From Leptolyngbyaceae cyanobacterium JSC-12 (GTDB lineage: Bacteria; Cyanobacteriota; Cyanobacteriia; Leptolyngbyales; Leptolyngbyaceae), in NCBI GenBank assembly GCA_000309945.1, contig CM001633.1:2638292-2702291 (forward strand): a stretch of 64,000 nucleotides of DNA, written 5' to 3'. Within the stretch, counting starts at the first letter, position 1. Every line of letters starts with the position of its first letter. Shown here in pieces: positions 9,374 through 10,823 of this stretch. Under the pieces are notes generated by a model, which was given only the letters and a program-made list of their open reading frames with translations, had not been told where the DNA came from and did not search any database. Both the position numbers and the translations under genes were made by a program.

Positions 9374-9598
9374 ATGGACTTTCTCACTTCTACCCTACTC
9401 GCTGGAGTCTTACTAACGATTTCTGTAATGATTCCTCCTGCAACAGCCCAGCCACTTTCTGCTAATCGTTCTGCTTGGCAACTATCGCCTGTTGTTGATG
9501 TTGCTCCAATGCACGTAGTTAAAACGGGCGGTCAACCCAAACATCGAGGTAGCGGACGGCGTGAATTGGTAAACTTTGTGGAACCTGTAATAGGTTAA
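9374..9598 (+). CDS. patX: PatX-like secreted precursor with RGSGR pentapeptide
   Basis: A 74-residue protein. Residues 1-26 form a signal peptide (charged/hydrophobic start, LLAGVLLTISVM core, cleavage after ATAQ). The mature part holds HRGSGR at residues 57-62; the RGSGR codons are at 9545-9559. RGSGR is the active pentapeptide of the HetR inhibitors PatS and HetN in Anabaena, and PatX is a known family of short, signal-peptide-bearing proteins with an RG(S/T)GR motif that is associated with HetR in filamentous cyanobacteria. Here hetR begins 322 bp downstream on the same strand, which strongly supports the call. Unusually for such peptides, 12 residues (RELVNFVEPVIG) follow the motif. No clear Shine-Dalgarno is seen. 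Function is inferred from motif and context. Confidence 0.85.
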   Translation: MDFLTSTLLAGVLLTISVMIPPATAQPLSANRSAWQLSPVVDVAPMHVVKTGGQPKHRGSGRRELVNFVEPVIG

Positions 9599-9920
9599 GC
9601 ATTGGTTGAAGTAGAGTCTCTGTCTGCTTGACTATAACCTATCTCAAGGTTACACTCATTGCGAGTGCTGAATATGGCGGAGAAACTTAGGCAATCTCCC
9701 TAAGACATTTTCGCAGGAAATGGTCAAAGTTGGGGAATAATACAGTAGTTGGTAGCTTGCCACTGTGGATGGATAATTTGGTCAACATGCGATCAGGGTG
9801 TTTTCTTCAGTTGATGGGTCGTGGATTATCTATCGTAAGGGCAATTCATCTATCATTGAATACGGTGGTGATTCGTAAGCTACTCACTTGCATTTGTTCT
9901 GATAGGGTAGTCACTTTACA
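9599..9920 (+). promoter_or_regulatory. patX-hetR intergenic region (hetR leader)
   Basis: A 322-bp gap between patX and hetR. It holds an open frame of 64 codons (TTG start) ending at the hetR ATG, but its translation resembles no known protein and is treated as chance. No obvious inverted repeat or intrinsic terminator was found, so patX and hetR could be co-transcribed, or hetR may have its own promoter here. The region is AT-rich relative to the flanking genes. Confidence 0.4.
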
Positions 9921-10823
9921 ATGACCAATGATCTCGATCTGATCAAGCGCCTTGGTCCTAGTGCGATGGATCAGATTATGCTCTATCTTGCTTTTAGTGC
10001 AATGCGAACTAGTGGGCATCGGCATGGCGCATTTCTGGATGCGGCAGCGACGGCCGCTAAGTGTGCGATTTATATGACCTACTTAGAGCAAGATCAAAAT
10101 CTCCGCATGACTGGGCATCTTCACCACATTGAGCCGAAGCGCGTGAAGGCTATTGTGGAAGAAGTGAAAGAGGCGTTAACTGAAGGGAAACTGCTCAAGA
10201 TGTTGGGTTCTCAGGAACCACGCTATCTAATTCAGTTTCCTTATGTATGGATGGAGCAGTTTCCCTGGCAGCCAGGGCGATCGCGGATTGCAACCTCTAG
10301 CCTCACCTCAGAAGAAAAGCGGCAGATTGAGCAAAAGCTGACTATTGATAATTTGCCAGATGCCCAATTTATTAACTCGTTTCAGTTTTTGGAGTTAATT
10401 GAGTTCCTGCACACGCGATCGCAAGAAGACTTCCCTCCAGAACGTCGGATGCCTATCAGTGAAGCCCTTGCAGAACATATTAAACGTCGCCTGCTCTACT
10501 CTGGCACCGTTACCCGCATTGATTCTCCCTGGGGCATGCCCTTTTATGCGCTGACTCGTGCCTCCTACTCTCCAGCAGAAGAAGAAGAGCGTACTTACAT
10601 CATGGTGGAAGATACTGCTCGCTATTTTCGTCTAATGAATGACTGGGCAAATCGCCACCCCAAAGCCATGCGAGCGTTAGAGGAGTTGGACATTCCGCCC
10701 GAACAGATTGATGCCGCTATGCAAGAACTGGATGAAATCATTCGTGCCTGGGCAGATAAATATCATCAGGTTGGCGGTACTCCCTTTATCTTGCAAATGG
10801 CAATGGGGATTCGGGAAGGGTAA
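9921..10823 (+). CDS. hetR: HetR, master regulator of cell differentiation in filamentous cyanobacteria
   Basis: HetR is a dimeric DNA-binding regulator; in heterocyst-forming species it switches on differentiation and is inhibited by RGSGR peptides. At 300 residues it has the full family length. The N-terminus ([28 protein letters not shown] in outline) and [18 protein letters not shown] are almost invariant features of the family; Cys48, known for dimer disulphide formation in Anabaena, is present. The flap region holds [18 protein letters not shown]. In the C-terminal hood, an EELD motif at 254-257 matches the acidic residues that contact RGSGR peptides in known structures. The start is the ATG at 9921. 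HetR is also found in non-heterocystous filaments, so its presence alone does not prove heterocysts. Confidence 0.98.

What the first reader, a model, noticed from the sequence alone, without database searches (positions are those of the whole stretch)
9374..10823. patX-hetR locus with an RGSGR precursor directly upstream of hetR
A 74-residue secreted precursor with HRGSGR lies 322 bp before hetR on the same strand. RGSGR is the known inhibitory pentapeptide for HetR. The pair would be a self-contained activator/inhibitor module, and in a filament that may lack heterocysts its target process is open. The 12 residues after RGSGR mean that processing must cut on both sides of the peptide, or that the longer form is active.
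Basis: partly seen in the sequence, partly recalled or inferred. Interest (0 to 1): 0.72.

Follow-up and report, generated by a model that had tools for sequence, protein, structure and literature searches.

The report
patX–hetR signal-peptide gene pair
A filamentous cyanobacterium, two of whose cultured relatives fix nitrogen without visible specialised cells, carries the well-known gene pair patX–hetR: a likely secreted precursor of a tiny inhibitory peptide next to the regulator it is thought to block; the pair is real and conserved, and its job in such filaments is still an open question.

Summary
A 74-codon ORF (9374-9598) with a hydrophobic N-terminus and HRGSGR lies 322 bp before the genome's only hetR. 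It is patX, not chance: 76 of 85 genomes checked have an RG(S/T)GR small ORF on the same strand upstream of hetR and 0 of 85 on the opposite strand. All 76 carry an exact TCCTGA (DIF1-like box) 56-69 nt before an in-frame ATG, 0.4% in shuffles. In the window's family 38 of 40 share the arrangement, and a 12-residue tail is the commonest length (17 of 34 single-copy), so the tail is ordinary. HetR keeps all six published PatS6-binding residues. The genome has nif genes, but a genus mate with patX-hetR has no nifH over the cut-off. This is a new member of a published kind (PatX/HetR; patX-hetR of Leptolyngbya BL0902). "Self-contained activator/inhibitor module" is unproven: in BL0902 PatX effects looked independent of HetR, and no consensus HetR site lies here. 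Extras: a dyad over the patX promoter, weak in many relatives, and relatives whose PatX carries two to nine RGSGR copies, or RASGR instead.

The parts
9203..9220 (+). terminator-like hairpin with T-run after ndhH, before patX
   Evidence: 2 terminator-like sites in the scanned region, both strands; 0.9 expected in shuffles
9314..9319 (+). TCCTGA, DIF1-like -35 box of the patX promoter, 60 nt before the patX ATG
   Evidence: exact hexamer 56-69 nt before an in-frame ATG in 76 of 76 patX genes
9338..9363 (+). dyad GTATCA(9338-9343)-N14-TGATAC(9358-9363) over the presumed -10/start region of patX
   Evidence: arms match better within than between genera (5.32 vs 4.39, permutation p 5e-5; relatedness not removed, arm windows chosen after looking); weak or absent in many relatives
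9374..9598 (+). patX, 74-aa precursor
9374..9448 (+). predicted Sec signal segment of PatX, residues 1-25, ATA|Q
   Evidence: hydrophobicity; cleavage site read by eye
9542..9559 (+). HRGSGR, predicted mature inhibitory hexapeptide (residues 57-62)
   Evidence: hexapeptide HRGTGR shown active in Nostoc (PMC12756182, passages)
9560..9595 (+). 12-residue C-terminal tail RELVNFVEPVIG
   Evidence: tail of 12 in 17 of 34 single-copy PatX of the family; E or D at the second residue after the first RGSGR in 37 of 63
9732..9747 (+). GGGGAATAATACAGTA, block 189 nt before hetR, candidate separate hetR promoter
   Evidence: exact in the 3 genus members; 2-4 mismatches at -152 to -193 in G276, G309, G084, G142; no excess over shuffles in the rest
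9921..10823 (+). hetR, the only copy found in the genome

Best explanation
This is an ordinary patX-hetR locus of what is most likely a non-heterocystous filamentous cyanobacterium. PatX is made from its own DIF1-like promoter, exported, trimmed on both sides to HRGSGR, and the hexapeptide binds the HetR hood domain of receiving cells and takes HetR off DNA. In this lineage the regulated process is probably not heterocyst formation; the best candidate is an older cell-fate decision of filaments such as death of single cells for filament breakage (necridia). Shown here: genes, order, promoter hexamer, intact pocket, conserved HRGSGR, breadth across genomes. Inferred from studied relatives: export, processing, binding, inhibition, diffusion. 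Conjecture of Khudyakov and colleagues (PMC7761841): the necridia role.
For: Same-strand patX in 76 of 85 genomes, 0 of 85 on the opposite strand; TCCTGA spacing 76 of 76; R223, E253, E254, D256, D270, D278 of Anabaena HetR all conserved in the window, and R223, E253, D270, D278 in 168 of 168 HetR rows compared, some genomes being in both sets; HRGSGRRELV is one of the two longest stretches unchanged between the window and G105; HRGTGR of Nostoc PatX binds HetR, and PatX is exported and cleaved (PMC12756182); PatX of Arthrospira, which forms no heterocysts, blocks heterocysts when overexpressed in Anabaena (PMC7761841); patX and hetR adjacent in Leptolyngbya BL0902 (PMC11298460). Papers seen as passages, PMC12756182 also as sections 10 and 14.
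Against: In BL0902 the double deletion resembled delta-patX in the two gene groups where PatX and HetR had opposite effects, so PatX effects looked independent of HetR (PMC11298460). No exact GGGN5CCC site at the patX or hetR promoters (the nearest is inside hetR at 10531). 9 of 85 genomes lack the neighbour, including one genus of this family; one of the nine has RASGR instead. The third genus member reads HRGSGRIEWV, so RREL is not fixed even in the genus. 7 of 76 putative PatX have a weak hydrophobic segment. Residue 2 of PatX is D where many relatives have R or H. No expression, processing or binding data were seen for this organism. hetZ, patU, hetP and patP were not looked for.
Confidence: 0.72

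Rival explanations
1. PatX is real and secreted but acts mainly on something other than HetR in these filaments; its place beside hetR is inherited or for co-expression.
For: BL0902 deletion transcriptomes: in the two gene groups where PatX and HetR had opposite effects, the double mutant resembled delta-patX (PMC11298460, passages).
Against: Four pocket residues of HetR are invariant in 168 of 168 rows, non-Nostocales included; HRGSGR lies in one of the two longest unchanged stretches of a fast-changing protein.
Confidence: 0.2
2. The uncut or only N-terminally cut longer form (HRGSGR plus the tail) is the active signal.
For: Residues after RGSGR are not random: E or D at the second position in 37 of 63 against about 9% background; RRELV is unchanged between the window and G105, though not in the third genus member (IEWV).
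Against: HetR R223 lies close to the peptide's C-terminal carboxylate (PMC4649674, passages) and is conserved; 12 of 63 single-copy PatX end exactly at RGSGR and 13 of 76 carry several copies, which fits release of the short form.
Confidence: 0.07
3. The ORF is a chance reading frame.
For: No Pfam or NCBIfam model hits it, it is short, and chance frames with the motif do occur elsewhere.
Against: 0 of 85 opposite-strand controls against 76 of 85; promoter hexamer and spacing in 76 of 76; conserved decapeptide.
Confidence: 0.01

Closest known systems
PatX / HetR pair (Elhai & Khudyakov 2018, paper not held, recalled; PMC7761841, passages)
   Same: hydrophobic N-terminus, RGSGR, DIF1-like box shortly upstream, in a genome with hetR
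   Different: hexamer is TCCTGA rather than TCCGGA; 12-residue tail; nothing that would exclude membership
patX-hetR of Leptolyngbya sp. BL0902 (PMC11298460, passages)
   Same: patX immediately upstream of hetR, non-heterocystous, patS and hetN not found, predicted DIF1 promoter
   Different: BL0902 has no nif cluster and three hetR-like ORFs; this genome has nif genes and one hetR hit
Nostoc PCC 7120 PatX, HRGTGR, processed by PatP (PMC12756182, passages and two sections)
   Same: Sec-type precursor with HRG(S/T)GR
   Different: S instead of T; Nostoc is a heterocyst former; PatP not looked for here
PatS and HetN of heterocyst formers
   Same: same RGSGR pentapeptide and HetR target
   Different: the residue before RGSGR is H here; no convincing ERG(S/T)GR gene found in this genome

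Membership tests
PatX | hydrophobic, signal-like N-terminus | tested here: met
   max 13-residue Kyte-Doolittle mean 2.65; 69 of 76 PatX at 1.5 or more against 16% of shuffles
PatX | RG(S/T)GR motif | tested here: met
   RGSGR at residues 58-62
PatX | DIF1-type box within about 69 nt upstream (criterion recalled from the 2018 abstract) | tested here: met
   TCCTGA 60 nt upstream, one letter off TCCGGA; 56-69 nt in 76 of 76
PatX | genome also encodes HetR | tested here: met
   one HetR, 322 bp downstream
PatX | exported and cleaved to a HetR-binding peptide | not testable with these tools
   no signal-peptide program, no wet-lab data
HetR | equivalog score and domains | tested here: met
   NF009718 575.4 bits over 489; Peptidase_S48 and HetR_C
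HetR | PatS6-binding and DNA-contact residues | tested here: met
   R223, E253, E254, D256, D270, D278 and R62, H69, E71, K73, R74, K76 identical
heterocyst patterning circuit | HetR site GGGN5CCC near hetR or patX | tested here: not met
   no exact match between 7742 and 10530
heterocyst patterning circuit | patS or hetN | tested here: inconclusive
   no convincing ERG(S/T)GR or second HRG(S/T)GR gene; other preceding residues not searched
heterocyst patterning circuit | hetZ, patU, hetP, PatP peptidase | not tested
   no reference sequence or model accession at hand

The most novel reading that the evidence does not exclude
In filaments without heterocysts, patX is controlled through a dyad that spans its presumed -10 and start region and is kept by compensating changes, so a dimeric regulator other than HetR at its known site sets the peptide dose; the pair is not tied to nitrogen fixation, and some relatives raise the dose further by encoding up to nine peptide copies per precursor or change the peptide itself (RASGR), which would make PatX-HetR a diversifying peptide signalling system for cell fate in simple filaments.
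Probability: 0.25. Interest if true: 0.62.

Novelty: new member of a known kind. Interest (0 to 1): 0.36.

Why it matters
What patX and hetR do in filaments that make no heterocysts is an open question in print (PMC11298460 says their functions there remain a mystery). This locus sits in a family with cultured nitrogen-fixing relatives in which no heterocysts were seen, which makes the question testable. [quoted passage not shown] I did not check how that survey places this family, nor that Leptolyngbya genome, nor patP; that tailed or multi-copy PatX were missed there is a guess.

Tried and rejected
Second RGSGR gene in the genome: the HRG(S/T)GR pattern gave 5 matches; patX and one out-of-frame reading inside a 1614-aa ORF encode the peptide, the other 3 read W or C at the S position. 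ERG(S/T)GR gave 2: one reads C (from the matched letters), the other ends a 39-codon open frame without ATG, and that end overlaps a 522-codon open frame on the opposite strand. Taken as chance; conservation of the latter and non-ATG starts were not checked.

nif linkage as the function: nifH over cut-off in 13 of 42 family genomes (a 14th, G313, has a hit split in two) while HetR is in 41 of 42; genus mate G105 (99% complete) has patX-hetR and no nifH over the cut-off. Rejected as the main role.

A regulon sharing the patX promoter: the strict pattern matches once in this genome; over 42 family genomes it gives 15 matches in 12 genomes, so it misses most patX genes. A looser pattern gives 3 in this genome, of which the other two have no ORF over 27 aa starting 40-140 nt on. 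Matches that are not patX: G170 (before a 298-aa ORF that reads like a substrate-binding protein), G299 twice (one with no PatX-like ORF, one before a 293-aa ORF that reads like an HtpX-type peptidase), G318 (no ORF of 25 aa or more starting 40-140 nt on).

The dyad as a genome-wide operator: GTATCA-N6-18-TGATAC occurs at 6 places (12 matches counting both strands, 2 in the reversed control); in the printed flanks the other five show no TCCTGA at the patX spacing. The dyad is weak or absent in many relatives: 24 of 73 score 7 or more against 3.3% of mononucleotide shuffles; the window's own score is 6. In one search three of 76 sequences were too short and dropped, and the arm windows were set after looking. 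I did not fold it as RNA: with a start 35 nt after the DIF1 box (patS, PMC7377430, passages) the left arm would not be transcribed.

Co-transcription: no terminator-like site on the + strand between patX and hetR, two weak promoter-like sites at 9628 and 9749 against 1.2 expected; undecided.

No structure was predicted: a single-chain model could not show peptide binding.

Literature: the founding 2018 PatX paper is not held, so I cannot say whether multi-copy PatX or the dyad are already described. Titles and abstract openings listed gave no sign of it, one search returned no paper, and passages of PMC7761841 mention no multi-copy PatX.

Full report
Observation. The window holds a 74-codon ORF at 9374-9598 (+) encoding a protein with a hydrophobic N-terminus, HRGSGR at residues 57-62 and 12 residues after it, and hetR at 9921-10823 on the same strand with 322 nt between. 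The upstream gene is ndhH, followed by a terminator-like hairpin at 9203-9220. It is the only HetR hit in the 5.53-Mb single-contig genome and scores well above the NCBIfam HetR cut-off.

Is it more than chance? HetR was found in 195 of 388 genomes of the class and in 41 of 42 of the window's family f1, its own genome included (the total of 42 is). I took hetR upstream regions from 88 of the 195: 40 of the 41 in family f1 (G318, a partial hit, was left out) and a hand-picked 48 of the other families. Three regions were too short. Of the 85 with at least 1400 nt, 76 have an ATG-started small ORF with RG(S/T)GR on the hetR strand and 0 have one on the opposite strand; in family f1 it is 38 of 40. 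In the separate set of 80 named loci, the 80 best of 359 relatives, 25 have it upstream on the same strand, and 0 of the 47 with Nostocales-type names, three of which have under 1.3 kb upstream. Without the ATG rule, opposite-strand frames with the motif occur in 4 of the 80. That patX lies apart from hetR in heterocyst formers is recalled, not tested.

Promoter. All 76 patX genes have an exact TCCTGA 56-69 nt before an in-frame ATG, five of them only at a later ATG than the first; 0.43% in shuffled upstream sequences; 0 of 90 before hetR starts. The hexamer was chosen from these sequences, so the shuffle figure flatters it, but not by orders of magnitude. It is one letter from DIF1 (TCCGGA); published work on DIF promoters allows one mismatch (PMC6133370, passages). 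Downstream the majority sequence is GTATCAGGGAATAGAAAC, with A for the second T in 29 of 76. In some genes a dyad spans this stretch, for example TCCGTATCA/TGATACGGA in G135 and TCTGAATCA/TGATTCAGA in G048 and G034, where both arms differ together. Arms match better within genes than between genera: 5.32 against 4.39, one gene per genus, 46 genera, none of 20,000 permutations as high. Relatedness was not removed and the arm windows were set after looking, so this is suggestive only. In the window the arms are 9338-9343 and 9358-9363. By analogy with patS, whose start lies 35 nt after DIF1 (PMC7377430, passages), the dyad would be centred near the start site and so act as DNA rather than RNA (inference).

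Peptide and tail. The residue before the first RGSGR is H in 58 of 76 and Y in 12. The second residue after it is E or D in 37 of 63, against about 9% background; the first is R, I, V or L in 53 of 64. In family f1, 17 of 34 single-copy PatX have a tail of exactly 12; in other families 12 of 29 end at RGSGR itself. Between the window and genus mate G105 (HetR 97% identical) 27 aligned codons change the residue and 24 are silent; the two longest unchanged stretches are residues 4-15 of the signal segment and HRGSGRRELV, 57-66. The third genus member has HRGSGRIEWV. So the tail is normal, its first residues are constrained in kind, and a role in recognition by the cutting enzyme is the simplest reading (inference).

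Receptor. All PatS6 contacts discussed in PMC4649674 (R223, E253, E254, D256, D270, D278; passages) and the DNA-contact residues named there are identical in the window HetR. R223, E253, D270 and D278 are invariant in 168 HetR rows, E254 is kept in 153 and D256 in 167; some genomes are in both sets, so the rows are not independent. R223 lies close to the C-terminal carboxylate of the bound hexapeptide, and the N-terminal amino group is held by E254 and D256, which argues for release of a free hexapeptide.

Context. The HetR tree (FastTree, 81 rows) puts the window with Leptolyngbyaceae-type sequences, outside a 49-row Nostocales clade with 99% local support. The genome has nifH over the curated cut-off, with neighbouring ORFs that read as nifB, S, U, D, K, E, N (names by eye). 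nifH over the cut-off is found in 13 of 42 family genomes, and not in genus mate G105, so patX-hetR does not travel with nif. Genomes G183 and G135 have exactly the published chromosome lengths of Leptothermofonsia sichuanensis E412 (6,426,061) and Leptodesmis sichuanensis A121 (5,348,817) (PMC8997340 and PMC8832068, passages). Both carry patX-hetR, both were reported to fix nitrogen, and in neither were heterocysts seen.

How it probably works. PatX would be made, exported, cut on both sides to HRGSGR and block HetR in receiving cells. Steps after transcription are taken from Nostoc (PMC12756182, passages and sections 10 and 14) and Anabaena. What HetR does here is not known. Khudyakov and colleagues conjecture filament breakage through necridia as the original use (PMC7761841, passages). 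Against a simple activator-inhibitor pair stands the BL0902 experiment (PMC11298460, passages), where patX effects were judged basically independent of hetR, and the lack of an exact consensus HetR site in this region.

Against the literature. The pair itself is known (Elhai & Khudyakov 2018, not held, recalled; PMC11298460; PMC12756182). The 2025 survey gives the patP-hetR-patX patterns as restricted to four orders and cites a Leptolyngbya as lacking patX; our count in the window's family seems to disagree, with the caveat that I did not check how the survey places this family. I did not test patP.

Further observation. 13 of 76 neighbours of hetR are multi-copy precursors: 2 to 9 RGSGR/RGTGR per protein, among them G177 (8), G224 (5), G062 (3) and G326 (2) in the window's own family and G162 (9) elsewhere. 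One of the nine genomes without RG(S/T)GR, G377, has a secreted-looking ORF 328 bp before hetR, TCCTGA 65 nt before its ATG, and four copies of RASGR; its six pocket residues are unchanged. These may be the most interesting leads, and they lie outside the window.

Noticed in passing
L127, L182, L139, L176, L178, L179, L181, L145, L177, L180, L183, L184, L144 (upstream of hetR); also named locus L081: PatX precursors with 2 to 9 RGSGR/RGTGR copies in one small protein, like a polyprotein peptide precursor.
   Followed up: partly
L157 (G377), 328 bp upstream of hetR: PatX-like ORF with four copies of RASGR (three preceded by E) and no RGSGR, behind a TCCTGA box; possible change of the peptide code. 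HetR pocket residues are unchanged.
   Followed up: partly
L158 (G123): Two PatX-like ORFs in a row upstream of hetR, 1428 and 637 bp away, each with one RGSGR.
   Followed up: no
L086, L088 (G197, G294, same genus): The two of 40 family genomes with neither an RG(S/T)GR ORF nor a TCCTGA-spaced small ORF in the 1500 nt before hetR: patX lost or moved.
   Followed up: partly
L198 (G170), L201 and L206 (G299): Matches to the patX-type promoter away from hetR: before an ORF that reads like a substrate-binding protein, with no PatX ORF after it, and before an HtpX-like ORF.
   Followed up: no
window 9732-9747: GGGGAATAATACAGTA, exact in three genus members 187-189 nt before hetR, with near-matches in a few family members: candidate separate hetR promoter.
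   Followed up: partly
window 11868-14507: 879-aa protein with HEAT repeats and a weak, below-cut-off AAA match, downstream of hetR on the same strand.
   Followed up: no
window 5893-7788 (-): M48-family peptidase gene about 1.6 kb before patX, beyond ndhH; no evidence that it is the PatX-cutting enzyme.
   Followed up: no
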